From the NCBI RefSeq assembly GCF_003711225.1, contig NZ_CP031030.1:1426001-1490000 (forward strand): DNA of 64,000 bases. The letters are read 5' to 3'. The notes beneath the pieces are model-generated. The model had not been told where the DNA came from. It made no database searches and worked only from the letters and a program-made list of their open reading frames with translations. This document shows positions 19,067 to 38,568 of the stretch, piece after piece (position 1 is the first letter of the stretch; each line of letters starts with the position of its first letter). Position numbers and translations under genes: made by a program. The stretch is from Runella sp. SP2 (GTDB lineage: Bacteria; Bacteroidota; Bacteroidia; Cytophagales; Spirosomataceae).

Positions 19067-19182
19067 TTAAGCAAAGTTAATTGTATATAGTTGTCAAATC
19101 GAGGTGGCTTTCCGCAACGATTATTGGCCTGTTATATACTTCAATTTATCTTCATAATGTTTTTTTAGTGATTGTCGAGGCT

Positions 19183-20601
19183 ATGTCTATTTCAAACGCA
19201 CACCCTCCGTCTCCTAATTACCGTATTCGGCGTCGAAAAAATCATCTTCGACTATTGGCGGATTTTGCCTTTATTGGTATTGTATATGTTTTTAGTTCTC
19301 TTTTTTTTGGCAGAGAATTAAAACAATTAGACATACTGGTCGTCGGAGGCCTTGTTTTGGCTTGGTATTTTTCCTCCAAAGTGAGCAAGTTATACCAAGA
19401 TTTTCGAATGGCTGCTTTTATTGAGGAGCTGTTGCCGCTCTTCCTAACATTGTTTGTTCAGTTTGTGACTTTATCTATTTCACTTTTTTTGTTAAATAAT
19501 CATTTCTATGCCCGTAGTTTTACTGTTGTCTATACAGTTTCATTGACGATTGTTATTGGCTTGAAAATGTATGTAATTCGACAAATAATGAACCGTTGGC
19601 ACATAAAAGGCACCAATCAAAAAAGTGTTGTCGTTGTTGGTGATTTTGCTTCAGTGCACGAGTTTATAGATTTGGTACAACAAAGACCGCATTACGGCTA
19701 TAAAATCGTGGGCGCGCGTGTTCATGACTTTGTTAAAAATGATAAGGTTGTGTTAAAAGAAACATTAAATTTTTTACAATCTACATCCATCAATGAAGTA
19801 GATGAGTTAGTAATTGCCCTTCAAAAATTTAGTGAAATTTACGTAGCGGGTTTGATTGAGTGGGCAGATAAACAGGGTGTTCTTGTTAAGTTTACCCCTG
19901 GCTTTTTTCAATTTAATGCCTCACGCTATTCGTTTGAATTATTTGGACAATATCCGCTGGTAACCGTACGAAGTACGCTGCTGGATTTGAATTATTGGCA
20001 GGGAATAAAACGGGCTTTTGATGTTGTTTTTAGTGTGTGTTTTTTGTTGCTGATTGCCTCGTGGTTGTTTCCAATAATAGCGCTGGCGATAAAAATTAAC
20101 TCCAAAGGACCCGTGTTTTTTATCCAAGGTCGCTGGGGACAAAAAGGGAAAATTATCAAGGTGTGGAAGTTCAGGACGATGTATCACGGCGCATCGACTG
20201 TTAAAAAGGAGGGAGGATTTAGCCAAACTACTTCCAATGATCCACGGGTGACGCTCGTCGGGCAGTTTTTACGAAAAACCAATTTGGACGAACTTCCGCA
20301 GTTTATCAACGTTTTTTTGGGGAGTATGTCAGTGGTAGGGCCTCGTCCACATGCCACAAAGCACAGCGAAGAAACCCTCCCACTGATTGATAATTATATG
20401 ATTCGGCACCGCGTTAAGCCAGGGATTACGGGTTGGGCGCAGGTCAATGGCTACCGAGGTGAAACCCACGAGATTGGCCTGATGCGCAAACGAGTAGAAT
20501 ACGACATTTGGTACATCGAAAATTGGAGCCTTTTGCTAGATATACAGGTAGTTTTTAAAACGGTATATAACATGGTGAAAGGTGATCCGCAGGCATATTG
20601 A
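19183..20601 (+). CDS. Undecaprenyl-phosphate glycosyl-1-phosphate transferase, copy 2
   Basis: Paralogue of the gene at 13907, the same 472-residue length when started at ATG 19183; an in-frame TTG at 19081 would add 34 residues with no counterpart in copy 1, so I rejected it. Same layout: N-terminal helices, nucleotide-binding-like middle domain, C-terminal sugar transferase with [22 protein letters not shown] and [12 protein letters not shown]. From about residue 245 to the end the two proteins differ at only about ten positions and the DNA is over 90% alike, while the N-terminal halves are clearly diverged. This points to recent gene conversion. The presence of two initiating enzymes suggests two glycans or redundancy. 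Confidence 0.93.
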   Translation: MSISNAHPPSPNYRIRRRKNHLRLLADFAFIGIVYVFSSLFFGRELKQLDILVVGGLVLAWYFSSKVSKLYQDFRMAAFIEELLPLFLTLFVQFVTLSISLFLLNNHFYARSFTVVYTVSLTIVIGLKMYVIRQIMNRWHIKGTNQKSVVVVGDFASVHEFIDLVQQRPHYGYKIVGARVHDFVKNDKVVLKETLNFLQSTSINEVDELVIALQKFSEIYVAGLIEWADKQGVLVKFTPGFFQFNASRYSFELFGQYPLVTVRSTLLDLNYWQGIKRAFDVVFSVCFLLLIASWLFPIIALAIKINSKGPVFFIQGRWGQKGKIIKVWKFRTMYHGASTVKKEGGFSQTTSNDPRVTLVGQFLRKTNLDELPQFINVFLGSMSVVGPRPHATKHSEETLPLIDNYMIRHRVKPGITGWAQVNGYRGETHEIGLMRKRVEYDIWYIENWSLLLDIQVVFKTVYNMVKGDPQAY

Positions 20602-20612
20602 TCAAAACTGCA

Positions 20613-20633
20613 TGACCGACTCAGGTTCGGTCA
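20613..20633. terminator. Hairpin between convergent genes
   Basis: TGACCGA (20613-20619) pairs with TCGGTCA (20627-20633) over a 7-nt loop in the 33-nt gap between the stops of convergent genes. There is no clear T-run on either side, so bidirectional termination is plausible but weakly supported. Confidence 0.4.
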
Positions 20634-20634
20634 A

Positions 20635-21900
20635 CTACACTTTCTTCTTAATGACTTCAAAGGCGGCGTTGTATTGACTTTGGACTTTTGCCATTGATTG
20701 TTTTACGCTCTTTTTAGCTGCCCCATAATCCGCCACTGTTTGTAATAGCCTGTCGGTGATTTGTTGTCCCGTCGTCTCTTCAATTTCAAACGTCCAATCT
20801 TTCAATCCTAAGTCGTAATACATCTGTCCTTTGATGGTGTCTTGGGGTTGACGCAAATAAAAGGCGGGAGTACCGTTAGTCAGCGCAATGATGGGGGAAT
20901 GGCACTCATAGCTCAACACAGCGTGGGCGTGGGAATACAACGACGCCGCTTCATCGGGCAGCCAATAGCCGTGTTTGACCACAAAAGGCTTCACATCTTC
21001 AGGGAGCGGGTTGACCAATAATTCATCAATAATATCTACTTGATAGGTCATTTCGGGGCAAACGACGATTTTGTTACCCGTTTTTCGTACCCACGCTACC
21101 ATCGATTCACGGACTTTGGCGTGGTCGATTTCTTTCCATTTGTCGTTGAGGTCGTTGACTTCCTTGATACGCTCTTCACTCCAGCCGCTGGGCCTGATTT
21201 TGTAATAAGGGGTTACTCGAAGGCGCGGAATCACACAAATGAATTTGCGATGTTCTAACTTATTTTCCTGAATAAATTGATTGGCTTTTTGGTCGTTATG
21301 AATCTCCAACACAAAAGTAGCATCAGGCGCAAAGGCAATGTGCGGCCCTTGTACACCCGCTTCTTGTAGCTTTTGAATAGAAGCCGTTTCCCGTGTAAAA
21401 ACAAACGAGGCGTGTTGGAGCAGGTCTTTCAACGCAGGAGAAATAGTTTGCGTAGTGACCCCAAAAATACCAAACGGCTTCTGGGTTTGCTTGTGCCAAG
21501 CTTGTAAGTAATCGGTAGCAACGACCGACGGCCCTGAACCGTGAAGGAAAAAATCAGCTTCCTGAAATGCCCGTTTTACTTCTTCCGTTTGAGGTGTCAA
21601 CTCCTTATCTACCGCCCCGTGAATAATGGTGACGTCGGGGTAGTATTTGTTGAGCATGGTTTCTACCATCTCACTTTTACTTTTTTTCCATAGAATAATC
21701 CTAGCTTTGGGCAGGCGTTTTTTCAACAGGCCAATCAGCCCGGGCGTATGGGCAATGTCTCCGATGTTGACATCCTGCCAACCCGAAGTGATGAGTATTA
21801 CAGGGTTGTTTTTTTGAGTGGCTTGTACCAAAAAAGGGAACATGGCTGCGGCTGAAATTAAGCTGCTTTGTTGTATAAATTGACGACGATTGAGATGCAT
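20635..21900 (-). CDS. Tat-exported polysaccharide pyruvyl transferase-fold protein 1
   Basis: 421-residue member of the polysaccharide pyruvyl transferase family (PF04230-like). The N-terminus MHLNRRQFIQQSS plus a hydrophobic stretch is a twin-arginine signal, so the protein is expected in the periplasm or on the envelope. Family landmarks: NIGDIAHTPG (residues 45-54, the donor-side N-x-GD motif), LHGSGPSVVATD, and the C-terminal SYECHSPIIALTNGTPAF (His-containing acceptor loop). Known PssM/WcaK enzymes put a ketal pyruvate on sugars from PEP in the cytoplasm; exported versions must use another donor or do something else. Third of three tandem paralogues, downstream of susD in the direction of transcription. 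Confidence 0.72.
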   Translation of the reverse strand: MHLNRRQFIQQSSLISAAAMFPFLVQATQKNNPVILITSGWQDVNIGDIAHTPGLIGLLKKRLPKARIILWKKSKSEMVETMLNKYYPDVTIIHGAVDKELTPQTEEVKRAFQEADFFLHGSGPSVVATDYLQAWHKQTQKPFGIFGVTTQTISPALKDLLQHASFVFTRETASIQKLQEAGVQGPHIAFAPDATFVLEIHNDQKANQFIQENKLEHRKFICVIPRLRVTPYYKIRPSGWSEERIKEVNDLNDKWKEIDHAKVRESMVAWVRKTGNKIVVCPEMTYQVDIIDELLVNPLPEDVKPFVVKHGYWLPDEAASLYSHAHAVLSYECHSPIIALTNGTPAFYLRQPQDTIKGQMYYDLGLKDWTFEIEETTGQQITDRLLQTVADYGAAKKSVKQSMAKVQSQYNAAFEVIKKKV

Positions 21901-21912
21901 GGGAATTAGATT

Positions 21913-23238
21913 TTATTTCGCCAGTTTTTTCACTACTGACATGGTTTCTTTTTGGCGGTTGCGGACTACATCCATGGCTTTTTGGGCTTTGGCTTTGGCC
22001 GTTTTGTAGTCTTTGTAAATTGTTAAAACTGCTCCCGTAATATCGGATGCAGGCGCTTGGTCTATTTCAAATAGCCACTCGGGGACACCAATGTCCCGAA
22101 ACATCCACCCTTTGCGACCGTGTTTGAGCGGGCGAGCATGAACCACAGGCACTCCCAACGCCAAGCCCATAATGAGCGAATGGGGTTCCATCCCAAACAT
22201 CGTATGTGCTCGGGCATACACCGACATGGCTTCGTCGGCACTCCAAAAGGTCTCTCGGCATACGACTTTGGCCTTGATGCTATCGTCTAATTGGTCGTAG
22301 AGCATCGTTTTGGCGTATTTAGTTTCTTTCAATGCCTCGGGCGCAATCAAAACTTTCATACCCGTAGTCGTGACCCACTGATGGATTAAGTCCTTCACTT
22401 TTCCCAATCGCAGCGCATCTTGTTGTTGCTGTTCGGGTGTAGGAGCAGGATTCATCATGTCGCCTTTGCCTGTGGCATTCAAATGCGGCGTATTGGTTCG
22501 TACTACTACCACCAAAAACTTCCCTTCTTCCAACCCTGTCTGACGAAGATAGGCAAGCCCCTTGGCTTCGTCCCGCACGTCTATTCCAAAACATCCATCT
22601 GGGCCAAATTCAATGATGGGGGTTTTGAACTGGTTTTCTTTCAAGAACTTGACCGACTCGGTATCACGACAATAGATAAAAGACGCACGGCTCAGTACAT
22701 CCCGAAAAAGCGATAACGCGGGCGGCGCAAACTTGTCGAACGACTGCCCGTAAAGCCCAAAAGGAATGTTGTTTTCGAGGCAATAATAAAAGGGAGCAAG
22801 GTTGGACATGACGCCAGTCCATTCATAATTGAACAAACCATAGTTCATCGACATTCCTGAGTTATGAATATATACGTCGGCTTGCTCGAATGCCGTTTTA
22901 AGTTCTCCCTGCAAACCTTCGTCTTGGTTGAAAAAAGCCCCGTGAACGATTTTTACTTTCGGGAAGTTTTTGACAATCAATGCCTCCGTAACGGGGCGAG
23001 GTTGGGCGTGCCACAAAATAATTTGCGCTTCGGGAATGTGTCTTTCCAACAAACGCAAAGTGCCAGGCGTATGACCAATGTCCCCAATGTTGTTGTCGTT
23101 CCACGACGAGCGGAGTAGTATCGTGGGTGTTTTGGCCAATGGTATTTCAGATATGTTCAGTTGTTCCCGTAGGGGCACTTGAATAGTAGTAGCCGCAAGG
23201 GTAGAAAGTTTAAGAAAATCTCGACGGGAAGTAGGCAT
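21913..23238 (-). CDS. Tat-exported polysaccharide pyruvyl transferase-fold protein 2
   Basis: Paralogue of its two neighbours. I start it at 23238 (MPTSRRDFLKLS), which places the twin-arginine four residues in, as in the two paralogues; an ATG at 23268 is also open but overlaps the upstream gene. The mature part has SSWNDNNIGDIGHTPG, then VYIHNSGMSM, FGPDGCFGIDVRD and GMEPHSLIMGLALGVPVVHARP. Its middle region is slightly longer than in the paralogues. It lacks the LHGSGPS motif of the other two (HNSGMS instead), so activities may differ within the trio. It lies 12 nt from paralogue 1 and is almost certainly cotranscribed. Confidence 0.72.
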   Translation of the reverse strand: MPTSRRDFLKLSTLAATTIQVPLREQLNISEIPLAKTPTILLRSSWNDNNIGDIGHTPGTLRLLERHIPEAQIILWHAQPRPVTEALIVKNFPKVKIVHGAFFNQDEGLQGELKTAFEQADVYIHNSGMSMNYGLFNYEWTGVMSNLAPFYYCLENNIPFGLYGQSFDKFAPPALSLFRDVLSRASFIYCRDTESVKFLKENQFKTPIIEFGPDGCFGIDVRDEAKGLAYLRQTGLEEGKFLVVVVRTNTPHLNATGKGDMMNPAPTPEQQQQDALRLGKVKDLIHQWVTTTGMKVLIAPEALKETKYAKTMLYDQLDDSIKAKVVCRETFWSADEAMSVYARAHTMFGMEPHSLIMGLALGVPVVHARPLKHGRKGWMFRDIGVPEWLFEIDQAPASDITGAVLTIYKDYKTAKAKAQKAMDVVRNRQKETMSVVKKLAK

Positions 23239-23251
23239 GACGTTTTTCGGT

Positions 23252-24526
23252 TCAGGTTGTAAAGACATTCTTTTTCAAGACATTCATGGTTTGTTCTTGT
23301 CGCTGTTTCACAAAGGCTTGGGCTTTTTTTACCTTCATTTTAGCGGCTTTGGGGTTCTTAGCCATTTCGAGTACCGTCGGAACAATTTTGGCGACATCAT
23401 TTGGCGTGTCCATGTCAAAGAGCCACTCGCCCAGCCCAATGTCTCGCCACATGTAGCCCTTGCTGGTTTGTTCGTCAAACCGACAAACGATGGCAGGAAT
23501 TCCCTGCGCAATGCACATAATGGGCGAGTGCATTTCCAAACCAAACAAGCCTGCCGAACGAATATACGTACTCACTGCTTCGTCGGTAAGCCAATAGGTA
23601 TCTCGCCATACCACCTTCTTTTTTACATCCTCAGGAAGTGGGTCGTAGAGCATTTCTTTCCCAATTCGCATTTGAGTCGCATTTTCGGGAACGAGCAAGA
23701 CTTGGAGCGGTGTTTGGCGTACCACGGCGATGATTGCTTCACGAATAGGGGCGTTGTCCTGCTCTTTCATCTTTTCGTTGTGCGCGTGCTTGGCTTCGTT
23801 GATGGTTTGCTTTTTAGAAGGCAACTCCCACCAAGGCGAAAACCGTACTTGGGGAATTGCGCACAAAAACTTCCCCGTTTCGAGACCGTGTTCCCGTAAA
23901 AAAGCATCGGCCGCTTGGTCGTCTCTGACATCCACTGCAAAGGCACCATCGGGACAAAATTCCATGATGGGACAGTTGACTCCCTGTTTTTTGGCAAAAT
24001 CCATGGATACCGAATCTCTGAAATAAGCAAAACGGGCTTGGGCCAAGATGTCTAAGTCGAGCGGCGTTACTTTTTGGCGATCTTCAGGGAAGCCATAGAC
24101 GCCAGGAAATGTAATGCCATAAATGCCGTAAGGTTTACCCGTGGTTTTTCGCCAACGCTCCACGTCTTGCTTGGCGACCAACGAAGGTCCTGAGCCATGC
24201 AGCAAAAAAACACATTCGGTAAATGCTTGCTGAATTTCTTCGGGAGTTTGGATAATGCGCAGTTGGGGAAAACGCTTTCGCAGCATTTCTTCCACGCCAT
24301 TTTTGACATTGGAAGGCCATAGGCGTACTTCAACTTCGGGCAAATATTTTTCCAAAAGTGTCAGCACGCCTGGCGTATGTGCAATGTCTCCAATGTTTTC
24401 GGTTTGCCACGACGAACGCAAAATGATCGACTTAGGTACTGCTGCCGTAGCTTCTCCCAACGCCACGTGCAACGAAGCCGCAAACAGGGAAGTCTGTTTT
24501 AAAAAAGTACGTCTATTGAGTGTCAT
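23252..24526 (-). CDS. Tat-exported polysaccharide pyruvyl transferase-fold protein 3
   Basis: First of the trio in transcription order, 424 residues. Tat signal MTLNRRTFLKQTS; N-x-GD motif ENIGDIAHTPG at residues 43-53; LLHGSGPSLVAKQDVE; EFCPDGAFAVDVRDDQA; and GLEMHSPIMCIAQGIPAI in the C-terminal domain. Overall the same two-domain Rossmann-like plan as its paralogues. It follows susD after a 135-nt gap filled by a palindromic element. What is seen: Tat signal and fold motifs. What is known: the fold is shared by pyruvyl transferases and related polysaccharide enzymes. Inferred: envelope-located action on the glycan taken up by the adjacent SusCD pair. Confidence 0.72.
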   Translation of the reverse strand: MTLNRRTFLKQTSLFAASLHVALGEATAAVPKSIILRSSWQTENIGDIAHTPGVLTLLEKYLPEVEVRLWPSNVKNGVEEMLRKRFPQLRIIQTPEEIQQAFTECVFLLHGSGPSLVAKQDVERWRKTTGKPYGIYGITFPGVYGFPEDRQKVTPLDLDILAQARFAYFRDSVSMDFAKKQGVNCPIMEFCPDGAFAVDVRDDQAADAFLREHGLETGKFLCAIPQVRFSPWWELPSKKQTINEAKHAHNEKMKEQDNAPIREAIIAVVRQTPLQVLLVPENATQMRIGKEMLYDPLPEDVKKKVVWRDTYWLTDEAVSTYIRSAGLFGLEMHSPIMCIAQGIPAIVCRFDEQTSKGYMWRDIGLGEWLFDMDTPNDVAKIVPTVLEMAKNPKAAKMKVKKAQAFVKQRQEQTMNVLKKNVFTT

Positions 24527-24552
24527 ATTTATCTTGAGAATGGAAGTTTATC

Positions 24553-24648
24553 CCCGCAGAAACTCGCAGAAATTTATAACCGTTGATTTTCGCTGAATTT
24601 CCTGCATCTGCGTCATTCTGCGGCCTTAAATCTGCGTTGGTCTGCGGG
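24553..24648. repeat. Imperfect palindromic intergenic element
   Basis: The arms 24553-24573 (beginning CCCGCAGA) and 24628-24648 (ending TCTGCGGG) are imperfect inverted repeats. Between them the word CTGCG recurs (CATCTGCGTCATTCTGCGG). The element fills the gap between susD and the first pyruvyl transferase-like gene, so the RNA hairpin could attenuate or stabilise the downstream part of the operon. It resembles REP-like elements of Bacteroidota; only one copy was seen in this window. Confidence 0.65.
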
Positions 24649-24661
24649 TAAAATAAATAGT

Positions 24662-26359
24662 CTAATAGCCAGGATTTTGCTCAAACTTGGCTCCTGTGTT
24701 GGCATCAATTACTTTTTGGGGAATAGGCCAATACTTGTTAAAATCTTGGATTGTTTTGCCCGAAGAAGGACCATTCGCCACCGACGGTTCTGAATTATAT
24801 TTTCTTACCCTGTCCACCAAACGTCCCATGCGAATTAAGGTGCGTAATCTGGGCTCTTCCACAATCAACTCCCGCGTTCTTTCGTCCAAAATAAAGTCTT
24901 CGGTTACTTTTGTTGCACTGATTAAGGTAGCTTTTGCCCTTGTCCGCACTACGTTGATGTCTTTGGCGGCATTTTCCAAATCACCCTTTCTGAAATAAGC
25001 TTCTGCCCTCAGCAAATAGGTCTCGGCGACCCTCATGCGGCTAAAATCTTTGGACGTATTGCCCGATAAAATATCGTTATTGATGGATGAGCCCTCAATT
25101 TTTCGGAAATAAGGATAATATTGGCGCAAGGTATCAATGGAAATGGCTGTGAGCGTACCGTCGTTTCGGGCCAAAAACAAGTTTCCGTTAGTTCCCTTTT
25201 TGACGACAATTGGCTTCCCAAAATAATCTTTGTCGGCAGGGTTGTTGTAGTAAAAAGTGCGGCGGATGTTATAAACCGAATTTCTCATGTCTTTGGGGTC
25301 TAATGCCCACACCTCGTATTTGGCATAATTGGTCGGAGAATTAACCCCAATTCCTCTTCCTATGCTATCGACTACGACATTCAAGACGCGATTGGGAGTT
25401 TGTAAGCGGTCATATTCGGGTCCCCAGTAACGAATACTGTTATTGGCCAAAGAAGTCGAAAAGCTCCCGCCTACGTTGGTACTTTCAAATTGCCAAGCCC
25501 ACATCACCTCTTTGTTACCCGCCGAGTAGTTGACTTGCCCATTGGCAAAAAGGTCAGAAAAAACATCGCCAGGCCGCGAAGCCGCCGCGCCAAATCGCGT
25601 CGTCATGAGTTGATAATCGCCCGCTTCTTTGTTAATCACTTTGCTGGCCGCACTGATGGATTTATCATAGAATGACGCATCTTTTGACTCCATTCCCAGT
25701 GAGATATAAATTTCGCTCAATAGGTGAAACGCCGCCGCTCGGGGGATGCGGCCGTCTTTGACTTGCAGCGGTAGTAGGGTGATGGCCTCTTCCAAATCTT
25801 TGGCCGCAAAATTGAGTACTTCGAGCCGAGAGTTTCTTACAAAATCAAATTTGGGTTCGGTGATTGTTTGCTTTACAATTGGTACACCTCCGTAAATATT
25901 GGCCAAAAAATTGTACGTGTAGGCCCGAAAGAAAAGCGCTTGTCCTTTAATGTTGTTAAGGTCTTCGGTCTTAATGCTGAGATTGGGGTTATTGAGGCCG
26001 TCCAAAACGGTATTGGCCCGTAAAATCATGGTTTTATATGCCCAATCCCAATACACAATGGTCGCATCTAAGTTGGGGTTAAGCAGGCTGTAATCTTTAT
26101 TCCCGCGCGAGTCGTTTCGTCCCCATTGAGTTTGATCGGTCCCTACGGTCATGTATTCAAAGTTGAGGGATGCAATGATGTGTTCCTGACGTGCGCCTTC
26201 GTACAAACCCACCACGGCGGCATCGAACCCTGCGGTATTGGTTAGTAAGTTTTCGGGGCTAAACCGATCCAACGGCACTTCCTTTAAAAAATCATCGTTG
26301 CAGGCGGTCGTAATGCCCAAAAGTGATAGAAGTAAGAATACTTTATATGTTGATTTCAT
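24662..26359 (-). CDS. RagB/SusD family outer-membrane lipoprotein 1
   Basis: Surface glycan-binding lipoprotein that acts as the lid on its SusC partner. 565 residues; lipobox LLGITTAC with Cys20. Features of the family: N-terminal FLKEVPLDRFSPENLLTN, TPR-like helices (IKGQALFFRAYTYNFLANIYGGVP), and the C-terminal SusD part with RVAETYLLRAEAYFRKGD, INVVRTRA, ERTRELIVEEPRLRTLIRMGRL, and WPIPQKVIDANTG..FEQNPGY. It lies 12 nt downstream of the susC stop. The ligand cannot be predicted; the neighbouring pyruvyl transferase-fold genes hint at an acidic glycan. Confidence 0.93.
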   Translation of the reverse strand: MKSTYKVFLLLSLLGITTACNDDFLKEVPLDRFSPENLLTNTAGFDAAVVGLYEGARQEHIIASLNFEYMTVGTDQTQWGRNDSRGNKDYSLLNPNLDATIVYWDWAYKTMILRANTVLDGLNNPNLSIKTEDLNNIKGQALFFRAYTYNFLANIYGGVPIVKQTITEPKFDFVRNSRLEVLNFAAKDLEEAITLLPLQVKDGRIPRAAAFHLLSEIYISLGMESKDASFYDKSISAASKVINKEAGDYQLMTTRFGAAASRPGDVFSDLFANGQVNYSAGNKEVMWAWQFESTNVGGSFSTSLANNSIRYWGPEYDRLQTPNRVLNVVVDSIGRGIGVNSPTNYAKYEVWALDPKDMRNSVYNIRRTFYYNNPADKDYFGKPIVVKKGTNGNLFLARNDGTLTAISIDTLRQYYPYFRKIEGSSINNDILSGNTSKDFSRMRVAETYLLRAEAYFRKGDLENAAKDINVVRTRAKATLISATKVTEDFILDERTRELIVEEPRLRTLIRMGRLVDRVRKYNSEPSVANGPSSGKTIQDFNKYWPIPQKVIDANTGAKFEQNPGY

Positions 26360-26371
26360 TGTTCCTGAATT

Positions 26372-29300
26372 TTAGAATGACACGTTAATCCCGCCAATAA
26401 ATGTTTTAAGCAATGGCCCGTTTGTGCCTGGGTCACGGCCGCCGCCCCCAAACTCGGGATCCCATCCGTTCCATTTGGTCCACGTAAATAAGTTTTTGCC
26501 ACTTACATACACTTGAAGGTTGGCTATTTTCAACTTCTTGATCAACGCCTCCGAAAAATTATAGGACAACGATACGTCTTGCAGCCTTGCGAAGCTTCGA
26601 CTTTCGTAAAAACCATACCCGAGCGGATTACGATAGTTGATTCGGGGGTGGGTATTGATAGGGTTTGAGGGCGTCCAATAAGGCGTATTGAGGAAATTGG
26701 CTTGGTCGAAGAAATTAGAGCCAGGGTTGATGAGCGAGTTAGAACTGTAACCACCCTCTCTGATATTGAACGTAGAGGACAAACTAAACCTTTTGAAGTT
26801 GACGATATTGGTGATTCCTACATTAAAATTAGGTTGGTTGCTGTGCAATACTGCGCGGTCTAAGGGCGTGATTTTGCCATCTGGTACTCCATTGGGGCCG
26901 CTGATGTCCTTAAATTTTATGTCTCCTGGCTTAGAGCCTGGTATTAACGACAAATCGTCTCCTTCCTGAAAAATACCATCAAATACATAGTCAAAGTTAC
27001 TGCCCAGCGGCTGCCCGATAAACCATCCACTGGCAATGTCATCGTCTTCTATGCCATCGTTGTTGATGTCTCTGCCCGTGAGCTGAACGATTTTGTTTCT
27101 ATTGAGCGAAAAAGCGAGGTTGGTATTCCATCCCCAGTCTCCTCTTTCAATATTTTTGGTTTTGAGGTCTAACTCAAAGCCTTTGTTTCTGGTTTTTCCA
27201 ATATTTCTCAAGAAAACCTCAAAACCGTTGGTGTTCGGGATGGTCTGGTTGAGGAGCAGGTCAAACGTGTTGGAAACGTAAAAATTGAGGGAGGCCGAAA
27301 TTCGACTGGAAAATGCCTGAACGTCGGTGCCAATGTTGAAACTTTCGGTCGTTTCCCAACCCAAATTAGGATTGGCGAGCGTGGTAGGGATGAGGCCGAT
27401 TGATACAGGTTGTCCATCTCCAAAAACATAATTCCGCTGACCAACTTGGCTCAAAGACGAGTACTCGCTCACGCCTCGGTTTCCGTTGCGTCCCCACGAT
27501 GCCCGCAGTTTTAAGAAGTCAATTTTTTTGACGTCTTTCATAAAACCTTCATCACTTACGTTCCAACTGAAAGCAACCGAGGGAAAAGTTCCGAATTTAC
27601 GACCCTCTCCAAAGGCCGAAAATCCATCTCTGCGTACACTCAAAGTAAAGAAGTATTTACTTTTCAACGAATAGCCCAAGCGCGCCATGGAAGAGATTTG
27701 ACGGTTTTGAGTGGCGCCTACGTCAATGCTGTAGCCTTCGCCAATTTCCAATGAATTGTAGCCTAACGCATCGTTGAAAATGTTTTGGCTTGACAGGAAT
27801 GAAAACTGGTTTGACAACTGATAAATGCCGTAAAGAACGGTCAAATCAAGGCTGTGTTCTTGGGCAAATCTTCGCTGGTATTTCATTATATTTTCCAACG
27901 TAAAGTTTTGGGTTTCCCCGTGCCTTTTAGAGCCAGAACCCAGACGATTGATAGGGGCATAGGTAGGGCTGTAAGCGAATGTTTTGGAGTCGGTTCGGGT
28001 ATAGCCGCCGTTGAGTTTATAGGTTAAACCTTCCAGCAAGGTCACATCGGCGTAGGCATTGGCAAAGAGAATATTGGTGATGGATTTGTTGGTGTTTAAA
28101 AGTGTTCCCAATAAGGGGTTGGTTACTAAGCCCCAGTTTTGGGGAAGAGGGGTAGGAGAGACGCCATCCTCTAAATATAAACTTGCGTAGGGGCTTAGGT
28201 AAGATGTTGCCAAAAGATTGGCCCTTACTCCTGAATTGTCTCTGGACGAATACCCAGAATTGATACCCAATTTGAGCCAATCGGTGGCTTGTACGCCCAA
28301 GTTTAATCGGCTCGACAAACGATTGAAATTGTCGCCTCTGACGGGCGATTTAGAGTCGGTGTAAGCCCCTGAAAAAAAGTAACTTAATCTATCCATTTTC
28401 CCTGAAACGTTGAGCTCATAATTCGACATCGGAGCACTTTGTTTGATTTCTTGGAAGGGGTTAATGGTTTTTCCAGCGGCAATATTTGCTTGCTCAATCA
28501 CCGAAAATGGGACACTTCCTCCCTCGGCTACTTCTGCATCTTTGCGCGCCGCCAAGTACTGCTCGGGGGTGCGGTAATTTGGTAAAAAAGCATAATCTGA
28601 AGCCCCCAAATAGGTGGTGAACGTAAATTTAGGTTTTCCTGATTTTCCTTTTTTGGTGGTAATTTCAATGACACCGTTGGTTGCCAAAGAGCCATAAATG
28701 GCCGTCGAACTGGCATCTTTCAAAATGTCGATGGTCTCGATGTCGTTGGGGTTGATGTCGGCCAAATTCCCTCCTGCATAAATAATACCATCCAATACGA
28801 TAAGGGGAGAACTATTGGCTGAAATAGAGTTGATTCCTCGGATTCGGATCGTTCCTGCTTGCCCAGGGCGACCATTGTCAATGACTTGCACGCCTGCCGT
28901 TGTTCCTCTCAGGATTTGCGACGCGTTGGTGTTGGGTTGCAATCGGGTGGCTTCCACGTCCACACTTGCGATGGCTCCCGTCAGGTCTTTCTTTTTCTGG
29001 GTTCCATAACCCACCACCACCACTTCTTCGAGGGCTTTGGTGTCGGGCTTGAGCGATACGTTGAGGGTGGTTTGGTTGCCAATGGCAAATTCTTGAGAAA
29101 TATACCCCACAAATGAAAATACCAAGACTTCGCTGTTACTAGCAAGAACAATTCGGTATTTTCCTGCGGCGTCAGTACTTGTACCGCGTACAGTTCCTTT
29201 CACTAAAACACTGACACCTGGCAAGCCCATTCCGTTTTCGTCAGTAACTGTACCCGTGATGGCTTGGTCTAATTGCAGGTCGAACATAGTGGGTTGATTC

Positions 29301-29695
29301 TTAGGTTCTAACCCTTCTGGCACGTTTCCCAAAACCCGACGCGTCAACACAATTTTGTTGGATCGGAGCACTTGGAAGTTGATTTGACGCGGGGTAAGAA
29401 TTTGCTGCAACACCGACTCCAAGGTTTCGTCTTTGATGTCGAGGGTCAATTTTTCGTTGGTAGTGAGGACTCCTTTTTGGTAAGAAAAAACGACATTGGT
29501 TTTTTGCTCAATGGTTTTGAGTACCGTTTTTAGTTCGGTATTTTTCAAATGGAGCGTAATTTTTTCTTGCAGTCGTTCTTGGCCAAAAGTATTCTCCGCA
29601 AAACTGAGGGTAGTCAGCAGACAAACAAACAGCAAGGGGGTGAGGGTGATTTTCATAAGATAGAAAATCTCTTTTCTGGTAAAGAAATTTGACAT
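26372..29695 (-). CDS. SusC/RagA TonB-dependent transporter 1, with STN signalling domain
   Basis: Outer-membrane TonB-dependent glycan importer of 1107 residues. Order of domains: signal peptide (if begun at the inner ATG at 29656, MKITLTPLLFVCLL), STN domain (about 45-115, LHLKNTELKTVLKTIEQKT), carboxypeptidase-regulatory-like domain (about 147-225, GTVTDENGMGLPGVSVLVKGT), plug with the SusC box EEVVVVGYGTQKKKDLTGAI, then the 22-strand barrel ending in an aromatic (NVSF). The STN domain fits signalling to the FecR/sigma pair encoded upstream. The 29695 start adds 13 residues, common in this family; 29656 is the alternative. Confidence 0.94.
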   Translation of the reverse strand: MSNFFTRKEIFYLMKITLTPLLFVCLLTTLSFAENTFGQERLQEKITLHLKNTELKTVLKTIEQKTNVVFSYQKGVLTTNEKLTLDIKDETLESVLQQILTPRQINFQVLRSNKIVLTRRVLGNVPEGLEPKNQPTMFDLQLDQAITGTVTDENGMGLPGVSVLVKGTVRGTSTDAAGKYRIVLASNSEVLVFSFVGYISQEFAIGNQTTLNVSLKPDTKALEEVVVVGYGTQKKKDLTGAIASVDVEATRLQPNTNASQILRGTTAGVQVIDNGRPGQAGTIRIRGINSISANSSPLIVLDGIIYAGGNLADINPNDIETIDILKDASSTAIYGSLATNGVIEITTKKGKSGKPKFTFTTYLGASDYAFLPNYRTPEQYLAARKDAEVAEGGSVPFSVIEQANIAAGKTINPFQEIKQSAPMSNYELNVSGKMDRLSYFFSGAYTDSKSPVRGDNFNRLSSRLNLGVQATDWLKLGINSGYSSRDNSGVRANLLATSYLSPYASLYLEDGVSPTPLPQNWGLVTNPLLGTLLNTNKSITNILFANAYADVTLLEGLTYKLNGGYTRTDSKTFAYSPTYAPINRLGSGSKRHGETQNFTLENIMKYQRRFAQEHSLDLTVLYGIYQLSNQFSFLSSQNIFNDALGYNSLEIGEGYSIDVGATQNRQISSMARLGYSLKSKYFFTLSVRRDGFSAFGEGRKFGTFPSVAFSWNVSDEGFMKDVKKIDFLKLRASWGRNGNRGVSEYSSLSQVGQRNYVFGDGQPVSIGLIPTTLANPNLGWETTESFNIGTDVQAFSSRISASLNFYVSNTFDLLLNQTIPNTNGFEVFLRNIGKTRNKGFELDLKTKNIERGDWGWNTNLAFSLNRNKIVQLTGRDINNDGIEDDDIASGWFIGQPLGSNFDYVFDGIFQEGDDLSLIPGSKPGDIKFKDISGPNGVPDGKITPLDRAVLHSNQPNFNVGITNIVNFKRFSLSSTFNIREGGYSSNSLINPGSNFFDQANFLNTPYWTPSNPINTHPRINYRNPLGYGFYESRSFARLQDVSLSYNFSEALIKKLKIANLQVYVSGKNLFTWTKWNGWDPEFGGGGRDPGTNGPLLKTFIGGINVSF

Positions 29696-29702
29696 AATTT
29701 TG
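29695..29702 (+). promoter_or_regulatory. Candidate antisense promoter (-7 box TAnnTTTG)
   Basis: TAATTTTG is an exact match to the Bacteroidota -7 consensus TAnnTTTG, on the strand opposite susC. Upstream, TTTT at about 29672-29675 is only a rough fit to the -33 TTTG element. It lies 70 nt before a + strand terminator with no + strand gene in between, which is why I note it. Confidence 0.3.
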
Positions 29703-29708
29703 ATTGTT

Positions 29709-29805
29709 TTTGTTTTGGAAAAGACAAAGCACGAACGCGCGGTGCTTCCTACACAACCGCAAGTTCAATAAGGGAAAGATGTGACCGCATCTTTCCTCTT
29801 TTTTT
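29709..29805 (+). ncRNA. Candidate antisense sRNA at the susC 5' region (DonS-like arrangement)
   Basis: Predicted ~95-nt RNA running opposite to susC through its leader, from the candidate promoter at 29695-29702 to the terminator at 29773-29805. Bacteroides utilisation loci are known to carry such cis-antisense RNAs between the anti-sigma gene and susC that repress susC. The location here is the same. The support is structural only: the terminator is strong, while the 5' end is a guess. Confidence 0.35.
29773..29805 (+). terminator. Strong hairpin + T-run on the strand opposite fecR/susC
   Basis: GGAAAGATG (29773-29781) pairs perfectly with CATCTTTCC (29788-29796) over a 6-nt loop, followed by TC and seven T residues (29799-29805) on the + strand. 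On the - strand, the direction of fecR and susC, no T-run follows. There is no + strand gene upstream that needs it. It is 117 nt from the MKIT start codon of susC. Confidence 0.7.
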
Positions 29806-29848
29806 GATTATGGGGGATAATTTTTTTTGGTTTACATACTGGTTGGGT

Positions 29849-30943
29849 TTAATGACATCCCTTTGACTCGATAATTATCTGGGCATCAATCTCTTTGTAA
29901 GCCGCGCCGATGGTTTGGCAAATCACTTCAAGTTGGTCGTACAGCGAATCATCGCTGATGGTGGTGGTGAGGATACAGTCGGAAAGCGTGTCTTCGTTGT
30001 AGCGGATTTCGACGCCAAACAATTTCTCCAACTCTTTGAATACTTCGGCTACTTTCACTTCGTCAAACTGCCTTTTAACCAGCGTTTTTTGGGTCACGAT
30101 AGGGATTGGTACTTCTACCAAGCTGCGGTTCAACAGCTCGTTGGTTCGGTTAAAAACGGCTTGTTGGTTGGGTAATAAAAGCAATCCTTTGGTTTCGGGA
30201 TCGGCGATGTCGATGCGGTTTTGTTTAAATACCGATACTCTCCCCGTCTGGACTTTCACCGTTACTTGTTTGCTATTTTCTAAGGCCGCGATACGGAAAC
30301 TCGTTCCCAGTACTCTGGTAATCAATTCATTAGAATAGACATAAAAAGGCTTGGCGGGATTTTCGGCTACTTCAAAAAAAGCTTCCCCACTCAGCACAAC
30401 TTCGCGTTTTTTGGCTTCAAAATGTACTGGAAAACTCAAACGGCTCCCTTTCTCCAGGTGCACTAACGTGCCATCTTCAAGCTGTACTTTTTGGGTGGTA
30501 GGGCCGTTGTTGATTATTTCCTGACGCGGGCTTTTTGCTTCAACCACTGCAATCAAATCTTGGTAATTGACTTGATGATCGGGTTGTTTCATGGTCCAAA
30601 GCCAAGCCGCACCTGCCACCAAGACCAAGCTTGCTGCCCACTTGAAAGCCCTTGTTTGCCAAAATTGAGGTAAGAAACTGACCTGTTTTTCCACAATATC
30701 TTCCTCAGAAATGAGGGCAGAGATATTGTTCCAAATGGATTTTTGGTCAAGCGAATGGGCTGTGGCTTCTTCCGCCTTTTGTACAGCCAAAATCAATTGT
30801 TTTGCTTGGGCAACTTCGTTGGCTTTGGTAGGATGTTGTTGCAGAAACTGTTGCCAAAAAGCGTCTTCTTCCCGAAACAATACCCATCGGACAAACGAGT
30901 CGTCGTGTAAAAAGTCGTTGCGTTTAAATTGGTCATAGTTCAT
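29849..30943 (-). CDS. FecR-family anti-sigma factor 1
   Basis: Inner-membrane anti-sigma regulator of 364 residues. The N-terminal cytoplasmic part (~1-90) binds the ECF sigma factor, a single membrane helix follows (about 92-110, WAASLVLVAGAAWLW), then the periplasmic FecR domain (NGPTTQKVQLEDGTLVHL, LSGEAFFEVAENPAKPFYV, TRVLGTSFRIAA) and a C-terminal DUF4974/STN-like domain (FDEVKVAEVFKELEKLFGVEIRYN). It receives the signal from the STN domain of SusC 1. It starts 21 nt after the sigma gene, so the two are cotranscribed. Confidence 0.93.
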   Translation of the reverse strand: MNYDQFKRNDFLHDDSFVRWVLFREEDAFWQQFLQQHPTKANEVAQAKQLILAVQKAEEATAHSLDQKSIWNNISALISEEDIVEKQVSFLPQFWQTRAFKWAASLVLVAGAAWLWTMKQPDHQVNYQDLIAVVEAKSPRQEIINNGPTTQKVQLEDGTLVHLEKGSRLSFPVHFEAKKREVVLSGEAFFEVAENPAKPFYVYSNELITRVLGTSFRIAALENSKQVTVKVQTGRVSVFKQNRIDIADPETKGLLLLPNQQAVFNRTNELLNRSLVEVPIPIVTQKTLVKRQFDEVKVAEVFKELEKLFGVEIRYNEDTLSDCILTTTISDDSLYDQLEVICQTIGAAYKEIDAQIIIESKGCH

Positions 30944-30964
30944 GATGTCGAAAACAAAAAATGG

Positions 30965-31576
30965 TTAATTAATAAGGCGGGATAGTTGTAAAAAAAGCAG
31001 TATGAGTGGCTGTATTCCTTTGATAGTGAGGCGCAATACGCTGTATGCTTTGAAGAGTAAGTTGCTGACCGACTGTTTACTAAGCCCCATGAGCTGGGTC
31101 ATTTGGTCGAGGCTCATGCCGTGGTAAAAACGTAAGTTGATGGCCTCCTGCTGACGCTGGCTTAATTGAGAAATGGCTTTGGCAACGGCTTGCGTTTGAT
31201 TGACTTGGGTTTCCTGCTCAATGGATTGTTGTTCGGACGAAAACGCCACCAAAAAATCAAGAAAATCATTGATGTCTTCCGAGGTTTCAAGCAAATCGTT
31301 GCGGGTGTTTCGGATCACCTGATGGCGCAAAGCCCGAAATAAATAAAACTTGACACTTTCTACGTCGGCAAGGTGCTGCCTGCGCCGCCACACATCCACA
31401 AAAACGTCCTGAATGGCGTCTTCAAGCTGTTGTTTGTCAGTGCTTAACCGATAGCCATAATTGGCCAACACCTCAAAGTAGCGGTTGTACAATTGTTCAA
31501 AGGCGCGTACATCGCCTTTTTTGAATGCAATCCAGAGGGTTGTTTCGTCGGTATGGTTTGGGTGGTTTTTCTTCAT
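30965..31576 (-). CDS. ECF RNA polymerase sigma factor 1
   Basis: Sigma-70-family ECF factor that would switch on the adjoining susC/susD operon. Region 2 is seen in LYNRYFEVLANYGYRLSTD and LEDAIQDVFVDVWRRR; region 4 in LSQRQQEAINLRFYHGMSLDQMTQLMGLSKQSVSNLLFKAYSVLR (helix-turn-helix). I start it at ATG 31576 (MKKNHPNH), because the 17 extra residues possible from 31627 do not look like sigma sequence. Pairs with the FecR gene directly downstream. Confidence 0.9.
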   Translation of the reverse strand: MKKNHPNHTDETTLWIAFKKGDVRAFEQLYNRYFEVLANYGYRLSTDKQQLEDAIQDVFVDVWRRRQHLADVESVKFYLFRALRHQVIRNTRNDLLETSEDINDFLDFLVAFSSEQQSIEQETQVNQTQAVAKAISQLSQRQQEAINLRFYHGMSLDQMTQLMGLSKQSVSNLLFKAYSVLRLTIKGIQPLILLFLQLSRLIN

Positions 31577-31938
31577 GTTTTTGCAAACGCTTGGTTGTCT
31601 GCTTGGGATAGTCACATTTATTCTCAAACGAGTGATAAACGCTTCACAAGTACAGGTACAAGGTTCGCAAAAAAATACCCTTCGTTGAGAAATATTTTTT
31701 TGGGGGGGAGAAGGTGGAGGCGGGCGAGGAGGAAGGGTTTTATTAGTTTTCTAAGCCACGCCTTTTGAGGTTAACTTATCGGATTAAAAAGCTCTATGCC
31801 TTCGGCTTTGTTGGGTAAGTTGATGGTTATCTGGGGGATAATTACTGTTGGTTTTCTCCGTTAAATCTTTGCAAATTGAATATACCAATCCAAGAAACTT
31901 GTCGAAATCAACGTGTTTGTAAAAAATATTGTTCATTT
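31577..31938. other. Gene-free interval, no recognised element
   Basis: 362 nt between the sigma start and the toxin gene stop. It must hold the sigma promoter, but I found no exact TAnnTTTG box on the - strand. It contains a G-rich purine tract (about 31699-31737). Short open frames on the + strand here have no recognisable features. Confidence 0.4.
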
Positions 31939-32208
31939 TTACGATTTAGGCTGCCATTCTAAGAATTGACGAGGGGTCAGGATTTCAATATTTCGATAAG
32001 GGTTTAGTACCAATAAATCGTCATCGCCTGACACAATGATTTGGGCTTTCCCTGATACAGCTGTCTCTAAAAATTTGTTATCTTTTGAATCGCGGCAGTC
32101 GGTAATGACTTCCTCAATATCTATCATTTCCACGGTTTCTAAATAGTGGACATAAAACTCTTGCCGCTCTTTCAAACTGACATATTTGTCAAACACAATC
32201 CTAATCAC
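31939..32208 (-). pseudogene. PIN-domain toxin remnant, N-terminal catalytic part missing
   Basis: The 89-residue product matches only the C-terminal two thirds of PIN toxins of the TIGR00305 type (~135-140 residues): FDKYVSLKERQEFYVHYL, then VITDCRDSKDNKFLETAVSGKAQIIVSGDDDLLVL and the terminal EILTPRQFLEW. The start (GTG, overlapping the antitoxin stop) gives MIRIV, as expected for a normal start, but the following D-T-N catalytic segment and about 45 residues are absent, so the sequence jumps straight to FDKYVS. This fits an in-frame internal deletion. Later acidic residues (CRDSKDN, SGDDDL) remain. It is probably inactive as an RNase, though it could still bind the antitoxin. Confidence 0.7.
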
Positions 32209-32446: not shown

Positions 32447-32574
32447 CGCTTTCTTTTTTACCCAAATATAACGATTTTACTAATAACTCACCGCGCTCAT
32501 ACAAAAGCCAAAGGTAGAAATGGCGGGTTATTGTCCTTACTGTTTTTAGGCAGAAATCAAACAAATATCCAACC

Positions 32575-34611
32575 ATGAAACTTAGAAGTAACCTGCTCCT
32601 TTCTCTTTTATTTTTTCTATCCCTGAACCTTTTCGCCCAAAAACCTTGGCAAAAAATGGTGACGGTGGAGGATGTCTGCGAAAGTTATCCCAAAGAAATG
32701 CAACGGCTTTTGAGTCGGCTTGATTTGGAAACCAAAGGCTTGGCACAAACGCGTGAAGCCTATCAAAAGGGGGACTTGGTGAATGCCTGCAAAGTCTTGT
32801 TGGCCTATTATAAGAATAATGGAAAAGTAGCCTTCCTGCGCAAAACTCAACCCGCCAAAGGTACAAAAACCGTCGCCAGTGCCGACACGATTTTGAAGGA
32901 TGTGTTTGTGGTGCAAAATGTGAAGGGAAAAGTGACGTATGGTGCCGATGGTCACCGCGATTGGTACTACAAGGGTCCCAACAACGACCGTGAATGGGCT
33001 TGGCTTTCCAATCGTCATAGTCAAGTGTTGGAGGTGTTTGAGGCGTATTTTGACACAGGAAACCCGAAATATGCCCAGTACATTGATGGTTTTTTGCGGG
33101 ATTTTATCATTAAAAGTTGGCCTTATCCTGCTGCCAAAGGAAGCGAGTCCATTTGGCGCGGTCTGGAAGTGGCGGCGAGGGCAAAGGCTTGGTCGAAGGT
33201 TTTTTATGGTCTCATCAACAGCGAATATCTATCGCCAGCTACTCAATTGCTGATGCTGAGCAGCCTGCCCGACCACGCTCATTACAATCGGAGTTTTCAC
33301 GGAGGGAACAATTGGCTTACGATGGAAATCTCGGCTTTGGCAACGGTGGCGACCAATTTTTCTGAGTTTAAATCGTCGAATGAATGGCTTGACTACTCCA
33401 TTGCTACCATGGCCGAAAGCATGAAAGGACAGGTTTATCCAGATGGAATTCAGACCGAACTAACCTCTCATTATCATAATGTTGCGTTGGATAATTTTGT
33501 GCTTTTCAAAGAGATTTGTGACCGTGCTAACAAGCCTTTACCCGATTTTTTCAACCAAACCATCGAAAACATGTATGGCTACATTGCCCACGCCATACGT
33601 CCTGATGGTTTTCGGATTTTAAATAACGACGGCGACCGAGGAAGTGACCGAGCAATCGTGCTGGAAGCTGCCCAAAAGTTCAATAAAAGTGATTGGGCGT
33701 ACATTGCCTCCAACGGAAAAACGGGTTCAAAACCTGTGGACGGGCCTTCTTATTTTTTTCCTTGGGCGGGGCAGCTCATTTCAAGAAGTGGCTATGATGC
33801 CCAGGCGCATTGGTCATTTTTTGACATTGGCCCTTGGGGAAGTGGTCACCAGCACAACGACAAACTTCATCTGTCAGTCTCGGCTTATGGCCGCGATTTA
33901 TTGGTGGATGCGGGACGCTTTGCCTACACGGGTGAAACGGCGGACAAATTTCGTCCCTACGCCAAAGGTAGCGAAGGACATAATCTTTTGTTGATAGACG
34001 GACACGGCCAAAAATCAGGCCCGACGCACGCCAAAAGCCCGCTAGGGGATTCGTATTTTAAGCTGCACAAAGACTTTGATTACGCAGCCAATTCCATGAG
34101 TGATTTTATAGATTTGGAAGGCAAGGCCGAGCACAGAAGGGCGCTTTTTTACGTGAGAGGGGCGTTTTGGGTGGTGGTTGATCAAATCAAAACCGATAAG
34201 CCAAGGCAAATTGAGGCGCTTTGGCATTGGCATCCGTCGTGTACTGTTGTGAAGGACAATTCAACGGTAAAAACACAAAATCATTCTGGGAACTTGGCCA
34301 TTGTTCCAGTTAGTTCACAGAAGTTTGACATTACCTTTATTAAAGGACAGGAAAAACCGACGATTCAGGGATGGTACAGTCGGGAGTATAATTTGTACGA
34401 ACCAAACACCATGAGTAAGTTCAGTACCCACATTCAAAGCAATGATACGCTGGTTTGGCTATTACTTCCCTCAGAAAAAGAAACGCCCATGGTCAATGCC
34501 AAGATTTTAACCCAAAACGAAACTGAAATGAGCCTTGAAGTGAAAATGAAGGGGAAAACATGGCAACTAACCATTCCCTACGCGGATAGCGGTGATGCAA
34601 GGCTCAAATGA
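32575..34611 (+). CDS. Secreted heparinase II/III-type polysaccharide lyase
   Basis: 678-residue exported enzyme (signal peptide ~1-22, LNLFAQ). The N-terminal two thirds form an alpha/alpha toroid typical of alginate-lyase/heparinase II families (SESIWRGLEVAARAKAW, GGNNWLTMEISALATVA, QTELTSHYHNVALDNF with a conserved Tyr/His pair). The heparinase II/III beta-sandwich signature follows: GPWGSGHQHNDKLHLSV with H425, Q426, H427 and N428, then GRDLLVDAGRFAYTG. Expected to cleave uronic-acid-containing polysaccharide by beta-elimination in the periplasm (PL12/15/17/21 range). It stands alone between two SusCD loci, convergent with the second, so its partner transporter is uncertain. Confidence 0.82.
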   Translation: MKLRSNLLLSLLFFLSLNLFAQKPWQKMVTVEDVCESYPKEMQRLLSRLDLETKGLAQTREAYQKGDLVNACKVLLAYYKNNGKVAFLRKTQPAKGTKTVASADTILKDVFVVQNVKGKVTYGADGHRDWYYKGPNNDREWAWLSNRHSQVLEVFEAYFDTGNPKYAQYIDGFLRDFIIKSWPYPAAKGSESIWRGLEVAARAKAWSKVFYGLINSEYLSPATQLLMLSSLPDHAHYNRSFHGGNNWLTMEISALATVATNFSEFKSSNEWLDYSIATMAESMKGQVYPDGIQTELTSHYHNVALDNFVLFKEICDRANKPLPDFFNQTIENMYGYIAHAIRPDGFRILNNDGDRGSDRAIVLEAAQKFNKSDWAYIASNGKTGSKPVDGPSYFFPWAGQLISRSGYDAQAHWSFFDIGPWGSGHQHNDKLHLSVSAYGRDLLVDAGRFAYTGETADKFRPYAKGSEGHNLLLIDGHGQKSGPTHAKSPLGDSYFKLHKDFDYAANSMSDFIDLEGKAEHRRALFYVRGAFWVVVDQIKTDKPRQIEALWHWHPSCTVVKDNSTVKTQNHSGNLAIVPVSSQKFDITFIKGQEKPTIQGWYSREYNLYEPNTMSKFSTHIQSNDTLVWLLLPSEKETPMVNAKILTQNETEMSLEVKMKGKTWQLTIPYADSGDARLK

Positions 34612-36040: not shown

Positions 36041-36041
36041 C

Positions 36042-38549: not shown

Positions 38550-38568
38550 AAAATGAATAACGTTTCTA

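What the first reader, a model, noticed from the sequence alone, without database searches (positions are those of the whole stretch)
20635..24526. Three tandem Tat-exported pyruvyl transferase-fold proteins attached to a SusCD locus
Seen: three adjacent paralogues, each with an N-terminal twin-arginine motif (RRQFIQ, RRDFLK, RRTFLK) plus a hydrophobic stretch, NIGDI[AG]HTPG, and a late [EM]xHS[PL]I motif. Known: polysaccharide pyruvyl transferases (PssM/WcaK type) work in the cytoplasm with PEP. Inference: the exported trio acts on the glycan handled by the neighbouring SusC/SusD pair, perhaps removing or rearranging a pyruvate ketal or using the fold for another envelope reaction. This is the best candidate here for an undescribed system: a utilisation locus with no hydrolase but three Tat-secreted, PEP-independent pyruvyl-transferase-like enzymes.
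Basis: partly seen in the sequence, partly recalled or inferred. Interest (0 to 1): 0.78.

Follow-up and report, generated by a model that had tools for sequence, protein, structure and literature searches.

The report
Exported pyruvyl-transferase-fold trio beside SusCD
Three neighbouring genes encode probably exported relatives of enzymes that normally attach pyruvate to sugars inside the cell; they sit in an operon for sugar-polymer uptake, an arrangement repeated in many related bacteria, and may trim an acidic glycan.

Summary
Genes A (20635-21900), B (21913-23268) and C (23252-24526) are on the minus strand, are PF04230 proteins over the curated cut-off, and begin with twin-arginine motifs. 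They end a run ECF sigma - FecR - SusC - SusD - C - B - A. The linkage recurs: in sampled regions of the host's family, 44 of 59 with this type of protein have SusC or SusD within four genes, against 2 of 52 ordinary PF04230 genes. The ordinary ones lack the Tat-like start (0 of 52, against 92 of 103), and the two types separate cleanly by profile score. Exceptions exist: five single A-type genes sit beside a sugar-transferase gene instead. Three old paralogue clades recur in varied combinations beside at least two SusD lineages. The predicted fold is GT-B. Of four PEP-docking residues of CsaB, Arg and His (and probably Lys) are kept, but one Arg is an almost invariant Glu, so PEP-dependent transfer looks unlikely. 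Some loci add uronate-acting enzymes, which suggests an acidic glycan. Removal of a pyruvate ketal is my preferred reaction, unproven; another cleavage is as likely. 'No hydrolase' is true of the operon, but a heparinase-II/III-family gene lies 0.9 kb away. My searches found no description.

The parts
20635..21900 (-). Protein A (421 aa): exported-type PF04230 protein, RRQFIQ start, ECHSPI motif
   Evidence: ORF; PF04230 63.3 bits; AlphaFold2 pLDDT 92.0, pTM 0.88; GT-B matches
21913..23268 (-). Protein B (451 aa): exported-type PF04230 protein, RRDFLK start, EPHSLI motif; R201, E361, H363, K386
   Evidence: ORF; PF04230 78.6 bits; AlphaFold2 pLDDT 92.6, pTM 0.87; GT-B matches
23252..24526 (-). 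Protein C (424 aa): exported-type PF04230 protein, RRTFLK start, EMHSPI motif
   Evidence: ORF; PF04230 40.3 bits
24662..26359 (-). SusD-like outer-membrane lipoprotein (565 aa)
   Evidence: PF07980 and PF14322 over cut-off
26372..29695 (-). SusC/RagA-type TonB-linked outer-membrane protein (1107 aa)
   Evidence: TIGR04056 789 bits over cut-off 368
29849..30943 (-). FecR-type anti-sigma factor
   Evidence: PF04773 and PF16344 over cut-off
30965..31627 (-). ECF-type sigma factor
   Evidence: PF08281, PF04542 over cut-off
32575..34611 (+). Heparinase-II/III-family protein, divergent neighbour; a 95% identical piece lies at the matching edge of the Runella defluvii locus L004, no close copy was found in the other Runella regions read
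   Evidence: PF16889 and PF07940 over cut-off; neighbour check

Best explanation
A, B and C belong to a distinct exported branch of the PF04230 (polysaccharide pyruvyl transferase) superfamily that mostly serves SusCD glycan-uptake loci. Shown by sequence: the gene set, the Tat-like signals, the recurrent linkage, the GT-B fold prediction and the altered active-site pattern. Inferred: an ECF sigma/anti-sigma pair induces the operon when the SusCD pair meets its glycan; SusCD brings acidic oligosaccharides into the periplasm; the Tat-exported paralogues, each for a different position or sugar, remove a carboxylate-bearing group. That group is most likely a pyruvate ketal, held by the retained Arg/His/Lys pocket (R201, H363, K386 in B) and cleaved by hydrolysis with Glu361 (and perhaps Glu311) as acid/base, so that lyases and glycosidases made elsewhere can finish the job.
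For: PF04230 membership. Tat-like start in 92 of 103 branch members in the sampled family regions and 0 of 52 ordinary PF04230 proteins, one of which has the RR motif without the hydrophobic stretch; TatC in the genome. SusC or SusD within four genes (either strand) in 44 of 59 regions against 2 of 52 ordinary ones; 36 of 60 (59 plus the window) have SusC-SusD-(at most one gene)-PF04230 in a row on one strand. CsaB docks PEP with R148, R306, H308, K328 (PMC10435577, passages); hhalign with E. coli WcaK aligns B R201 and H363 to the Arg and His, and E361 to the Arg two before the His. R201 and H363 are kept in 206 of 206 members, K386 and E361 in 204 of 206; the two exceptions are two copies of one gene whose tail is out of frame. 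E311 and H66 are 206 of 206. Uronate-acting neighbours in some loci: PL8 (nearest chondroitinase AC), heparinase-like, alginate lyase, GH88-like and GntP permease.
Against: No activity is known to me for any member, and sequence searches found no PDB relative. The nearest solved folds are nucleotide-sugar epimerases and glycosyltransferases, so a glycosidic reaction is as natural. Fifteen of 59 regions have no SusC/SusD within four genes; in five (L180, L184, L195, L206, L219) an A-type gene is followed on the same strand, about 280-550 bp on, by a sugar-transferase gene (PF02397 checked in L180), which points to glycan synthesis there. In the window too a sugar-transferase gene ends 33 bp from A. 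Some relatives sit with GH31 and GH97 genes rather than uronate enzymes. 31 of 120 listed homologues of B lack the RR motif; some, such as Oceanipulchritudo P0070 and Kiritimatiellaeota P0081, show no signal. K386 is matched to CsaB K328 by spacing only: hhalign puts the WcaK Lys two residues off. The PL8 neighbours resemble chondroitinase, not xanthan lyase. TIGR01409 gave no match over its cut-off.
Confidence: 0.33

Rival explanations
1. The exported branch uses the GT-B fold to break a glycosidic bond or the bond to another substituent (hydrolysis, elimination or phosphorolysis) of an acidic polysaccharide, unrelated to pyruvate; the paralogues are the depolymerising enzymes of loci that have no other one.
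Against: I know of no GT-B-fold polysaccharide hydrolase (recalled). The retained Arg/His/Lys pocket points to a carboxylate or phosphate ligand rather than a neutral sugar.
Confidence: 0.34
2. They are exported pyruvyl transferases that add pyruvate to a surface or periplasmic glycan with PEP or another donor.
For: PF04230 over cut-off; Arg and His, probably Lys, of the PEP pocket retained; a glycan-synthesis cluster ends 33 bp from gene A, and in five regions without SusCD an A-type gene precedes a sugar-transferase gene on the same strand. Pvg1p works in the Golgi with imported PEP (PMC4872226, passages).
Against: I know of no PEP supply in the periplasm (recalled). The Arg that meets PEP is a Glu in every row of 206 with an in-frame tail. 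In most regions the neighbours are SusC/SusD. In the window the synthesis cluster is convergent, and apart from the window that cluster was seen beside the trio only in R. defluvii (L004 and L163, apparently the same genome).
Confidence: 0.13
3. They are non-catalytic periplasmic glycan-binding partners of SusCD that kept the fold of an enzyme.
For: Signal plus frequent SusCD linkage; no catalytic data.
Against: Several charged residues (D63, H66, R201, D224, E311, H363) are kept in all 206 sequences from several phyla, which suggests catalysis.
Confidence: 0.1

Closest known systems
Ketal-pyruvyltransferases of PF04230 (CsaB, WcaK, Pvg1p)
   Same: Pfam family for CsaB-type proteins; N-x-G-D motif; Arg, His and probably Lys of the PEP pocket
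   Different: Tat-like signal; Arg306(CsaB)/Arg337(Pvg1p) position is Glu; extra invariant H66, E311, W342; SusCD context; TIGR03609 CsaB only 22.6-30 bits against a cut-off of 213
SusCD polysaccharide utilisation loci with ECF sigma/FecR control
   Same: Sigma, FecR, SusC, SusD in canonical order
   Different: The operon's enzyme genes are PF04230 paralogues; no glycosidase or lyase in the operon itself
Non-hydrolysing UDP-GlcNAc 2-epimerases / BshA-type GT-B enzymes
   Different: 7-15% identity; those enzymes are cytoplasmic and use nucleotide sugars (recalled)
Xanthan degradation with PL8 lyases that release pyruvylated mannose
   Same: Acidic, pyruvylated exopolysaccharide as target; PL8 genes occur in some relatives' cassettes
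   Different: The Paenibacillus system (PMC12827396, passages) releases pyruvylated mannose, and the passages seen name no depyruvylating enzyme; the PL8 here is nearest chondroitinase AC
PvGal-ase of Bacillus HMA207
   Same: An enzyme for breaking down pyruvylated glycans (PMC6090015, abstract)
   Different: A beta-galactosidase that releases pyruvylated galactose, by the abstract, so the ketal stays on the sugar

Membership tests
PF04230 superfamily | Profile score over the curated cut-off (25.3 bits) | tested here: met
   63.3, 78.6, 40.3 bits
Ketal-pyruvyltransferase (function) | PEP-docking set R148, R306, H308, K328 (CsaB numbering) | tested here: not met
   R and H kept in 206 of 206, K in 204 of 206 (by spacing), but the R306 position is Glu in 204 of 206 and out of frame in the other two. 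Of 52 ordinary PF04230 proteins in the same genomes none was read as Glu there: 28 Arg, 10 Ser, 2 Thr, 1 Ala, 1 Lys, 10 not readable by a simple motif search. So Arg is not universal in ordinary ones either
Ketal-pyruvyltransferase (function) | PEP-dependent transfer activity | not testable with these tools
   Needs an enzyme assay
CsaB equivalog TIGR03609 | Score over 213.1 bits | tested here: not met
   22.6, 30.0, 23.6 bits
Tat substrate | Twin-arginine motif followed by a hydrophobic stretch, Tat translocase in the genome | tested here: met
   No TatP/SignalP program was available; the test was a motif and hydropathy script with thresholds of my own
Tat substrate | TIGR01409 Tat signal model over its cut-off (16.7 bits) | tested here: not met
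   B 14.7 bits; A and C not listed, though their N-termini align weakly to Tat proteins (FtsP 11.0, PvdN 11.4 bits)
Tat substrate | Measured Tat-dependent export | not testable with these tools
   Needs a reporter fusion
SusCD utilisation locus | Adjacent SusC and SusD with regulator | tested here: met
SusCD utilisation locus | A glycan-cleaving enzyme in the locus | tested here: inconclusive
   None in the operon; heparinase-II/III family gene divergent, 0.9 kb away
GT-B fold | Two Rossmann-like domains matching solved GT-B proteins | tested here: met

The most novel reading that the evidence does not exclude
The exported PF04230 branch is a new class of polysaccharide-processing enzyme: either the first enzymes known to me that strip pyruvate ketals from glycans, or GT-B-fold enzymes that cleave an acidic glycan, and they are the only enzymes of a recurrent sigma-FecR-SusC-SusD operon that carries no glycosidase of its own.
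Probability: 0.48. Interest if true: 0.82.

Novelty: new variant of a known kind. Interest (0 to 1): 0.62.

Why it matters
Where sources name these proteins at all, most call them 'polysaccharide pyruvyl transferase' (360 relatives listed), which puts probable catabolic enzymes under a biosynthetic name. [quoted passage not shown] This branch gives specific genes, residues and loci with which to look for one, or for an unexpected use of the GT-B fold in glycan breakdown. It would also explain SusCD operons that seem to have no enzyme.

Tried and rejected
Ordinary biosynthetic PF04230 genes misread as exported: rejected by the bimodal profile scores. Against the A3 profile, 24 of 127 matching ORFs scored 54 bits or less and 103 scored 268 or more.

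Linkage to SusCD as an accident of one genome: rejected. Linkage to SusCD as universal: also rejected (15 of 59 without).

Xanthan as the target because PL8 lies in three Larkinella/Spirosoma cassettes: weakened, since that PL8 is nearest chondroitinase AC.

Heparinase neighbour as a constant part: not supported. A 95% identical piece lies at the edge of R. defluvii L004, but no close copy was found in the other Runella regions read; some of those regions end near the equivalent place.

Promoter and terminator scan of 20400-32700: no more hits than shuffles (14 against 17.4; 14 against 16.6), so no use.

Pvg1p (5ax7) was not among the rows shown by Foldseek or VIA-align, which decides nothing. 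Sequence searches of the PDB gave no relative, nor for WcaK. A phylum-wide sample found the family in 2 of 395 genomes, one of them the host's own, but only four candidates per genome were scored in the rows shown, so it is a lower bound. No atomic coordinates were available, so distances in the active site could not be measured.

Paper searches without a relevant paper for 'pyruvyl transferase' with utilisation-locus terms: (20 of 50 seen in the last). Searches for ketal-removing enzymes: (15 of 284 seen).

Full report
What is there. Three adjacent genes on the minus strand (A 20635-21900, B 21913-23268, C 23252-24526) encode proteins of 421, 451 and 424 aa. C and B overlap by 17 bp, and B and A are 12 bp apart. 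Upstream on the same strand lie SusD (24662-26359), SusC (26372-29695), a FecR-type anti-sigma factor (29849-30943) and an ECF sigma factor (30965-31627). The last gene, A, ends 33 bp from a convergent sugar-transferase gene at the end of a run of glycan-synthesis-like genes. All three score over the PF04230 cut-off, and they are the genome's only three PF04230 matches. The nearest named genome in the tree is Runella defluvii, 96-98% identical for the three proteins.

Export. Each protein starts with a twin-arginine motif and a hydrophobic stretch. The genome has TatC. The TIGR01409 Tat model gives 14.7 bits for B, under its cut-off of 16.7, and does not list A or C. The stronger evidence is comparative: in 120 regions taken from the host's family, 92 of 103 members of this branch have the motif plus a hydrophobic stretch, and 0 of 52 ordinary PF04230 proteins do. 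Among 120 listed homologues of B, 89 have an RRx[FLMI] motif in the first 45 residues; of the other 31 some look Sec-exported, some are fragments and others show no signal, among them named Oceanipulchritudo and Kiritimatiellaeota proteins (names).

A separate branch. A profile of 98 sequences (A3) scores the 127 matching ORFs of the 120 family regions in two groups with nothing between 54 and 268 bits. The regions were chosen from the matches listed; ten listed places and all unlisted matches were not fetched, so this is a large but not complete sample. A quick tree of 97 rows (SH-aLRT support only, some long branches flagged) shows A, B and C in separate clades with support 100, 100 and 95-100, each with rows from other genera and, in the B clade or as neighbours of A and C, from other phyla. 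The trio is thus a set of old paralogues, not a recent triplication.

Linkage to SusCD. Of the 59 regions with this branch, 44 have SusC or SusD within four genes on either strand, and 39 have the sigma factor or FecR within four genes. Of 61 regions with ordinary PF04230 genes, 5 have SusC or SusD anywhere in about 19 kb. Of the 52 in which the gene itself was located, 2 have one within four genes. In 36 of 60 regions (59 plus the window) SusC, SusD, at most one gene, and one to four of these proteins follow each other on one strand, in combinations A, B, BA, CA, CBA, CCBA, BCC and others. The SusD beside them falls into at least two groups: one 48-96% identical to the window's, the other 24-34%, in part over short stretches. 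The module has therefore been used with more than one SusCD pair. In six named Verrucomicrobiota loci a relative lies within four genes of a TonB-receptor cluster (L040, L048, L054, L055, L067, L071; Pfam checked in L067).

Where the linkage fails. Fifteen of the 59 regions have no SusC or SusD within four genes: L168, L173, L179, L180, L184, L185, L195, L196, L206, L210, L218, L219, L222, L227, L233. Fourteen hold a single gene of this branch, read as A-type; L218 is a 4.4 kb contig, and L173 and L227 are also short. In L180, L184, L195, L206 and L219 the A-type gene is followed on the same strand by a sugar-transferase gene of the same cluster as the window's two (PF02397 in L180), with a LytTR-type response regulator upstream (L180). 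These look like glycan-synthesis surroundings and count against a purely catabolic role for all members.

Which glycan. Many cassettes show no other enzyme. Where there is one, it often acts on uronates: a PL8 lyase between SusD and the PF04230 genes in L013, L014 and L016 (Pfam in L014 and L013), nearest chondroitinase AC; heparinase-like proteins in L081, L196 and L223 (the L223 one is below the Pfam cut-off); an alginate lyase in L223; GH28 in L011; and in several Runella genomes, downstream of the PF04230 genes, some or all of a GntP gluconate-type permease, a GH88-like protein below the Pfam cut-off, an FMN oxidoreductase and a short-chain dehydrogenase. Against a single theme stand GH31 and GH97 beside L030's gene (L027 by cluster), GH29 in L012 and GH39 in L007. 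In the window a heparinase-II/III-family gene lies 0.9 kb beyond the sigma gene, divergent, and a mannonate dehydratase (UxuA) lies 33 kb away.

Reading. A pocket that keeps groups for a carboxylate but puts a Glu where PEP's Arg sat, in a protein with an export signal mostly tied to glycan import, fits removal of a carboxylate-bearing group better than PEP-dependent addition. Pyruvate ketals are the obvious candidate; they occur on exopolysaccharides such as xanthan and succinoglycan (PMC6801904, passages). Cleavage of a uronic-acid-containing glycan by the same fold fits as well. No step of the chemistry is shown. I give 0.33 to ketal removal, 0.34 to another cleavage, 0.13 to PEP-type transfer and 0.1 to binding alone. 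I name ketal removal as the lead because it uses the retained pocket, not because the odds differ.

Literature. Ten searches were made. No paper was found that joins PF04230 or pyruvyl transferases to utilisation loci (in one search, 20 of 50 papers were seen, and 'susc' there appears to match words such as 'susceptible'). The seven papers with 'PF04230' (listing only) appear from their titles to concern synthesis or general genomics. A search for words such as depyruvylase found none. The library is open-access PMC only, so absence there is not absence from print.

Noticed in passing
window 34628-47128: A second sigma-FecR-SusC-SusD locus next door (SusD and a TonB plug domain by Pfam; the sigma and FecR genes read from sequence only) with an exo-beta-N-acetylmuramidase (NamZ) family protein, an 835-aa protein with only a sub-threshold CBM35 match, and a protein joining a GDPD phosphodiesterase to a GH16 domain.
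   Followed up: partly
window 13907-15325 and 19081-20601: Two similar sugar-transferase genes (PF02397) flank part of the glycan-synthesis run; the reading frame of the second is longer at its start, from a TTG.
   Followed up: partly
window 11120-13885: A 921-aa protein with several repeats of about 100 residues, seen by eye, and no Pfam match.
   Followed up: no
window 59473-61035: One protein joins an alpha/beta-hydrolase to a GDSL-type lipase domain; nearby are a mannonate dehydratase (57239-58426) and a protein with two 3-keto-disaccharide hydrolase stretches (53743-55098).
   Followed up: no
L049, L053, L056, L059, L061, L070: In Verrucomicrobiota the PF04230 relatives lie in a recurrent block with FAD_oxidored (PF12831, Pfam in L056), mostly with DUF4886-type and in some loci DUF4838-type genes, another uncharacterised neighbourhood.
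   Followed up: partly
L174 and L176: A protein of about 1055 aa with repeated FAD_oxidored matches (Pfam in L176) lies in the same gene run as the PF04230 gene and SusCD.
   Followed up: no
L018 9036-10232 and L186 7570-8766: One C-type gene of this branch has a tail that reads out of frame after the WLTDEA motif, in two copies of apparently the same genome; decayed gene or sequencing error.
   Followed up: no
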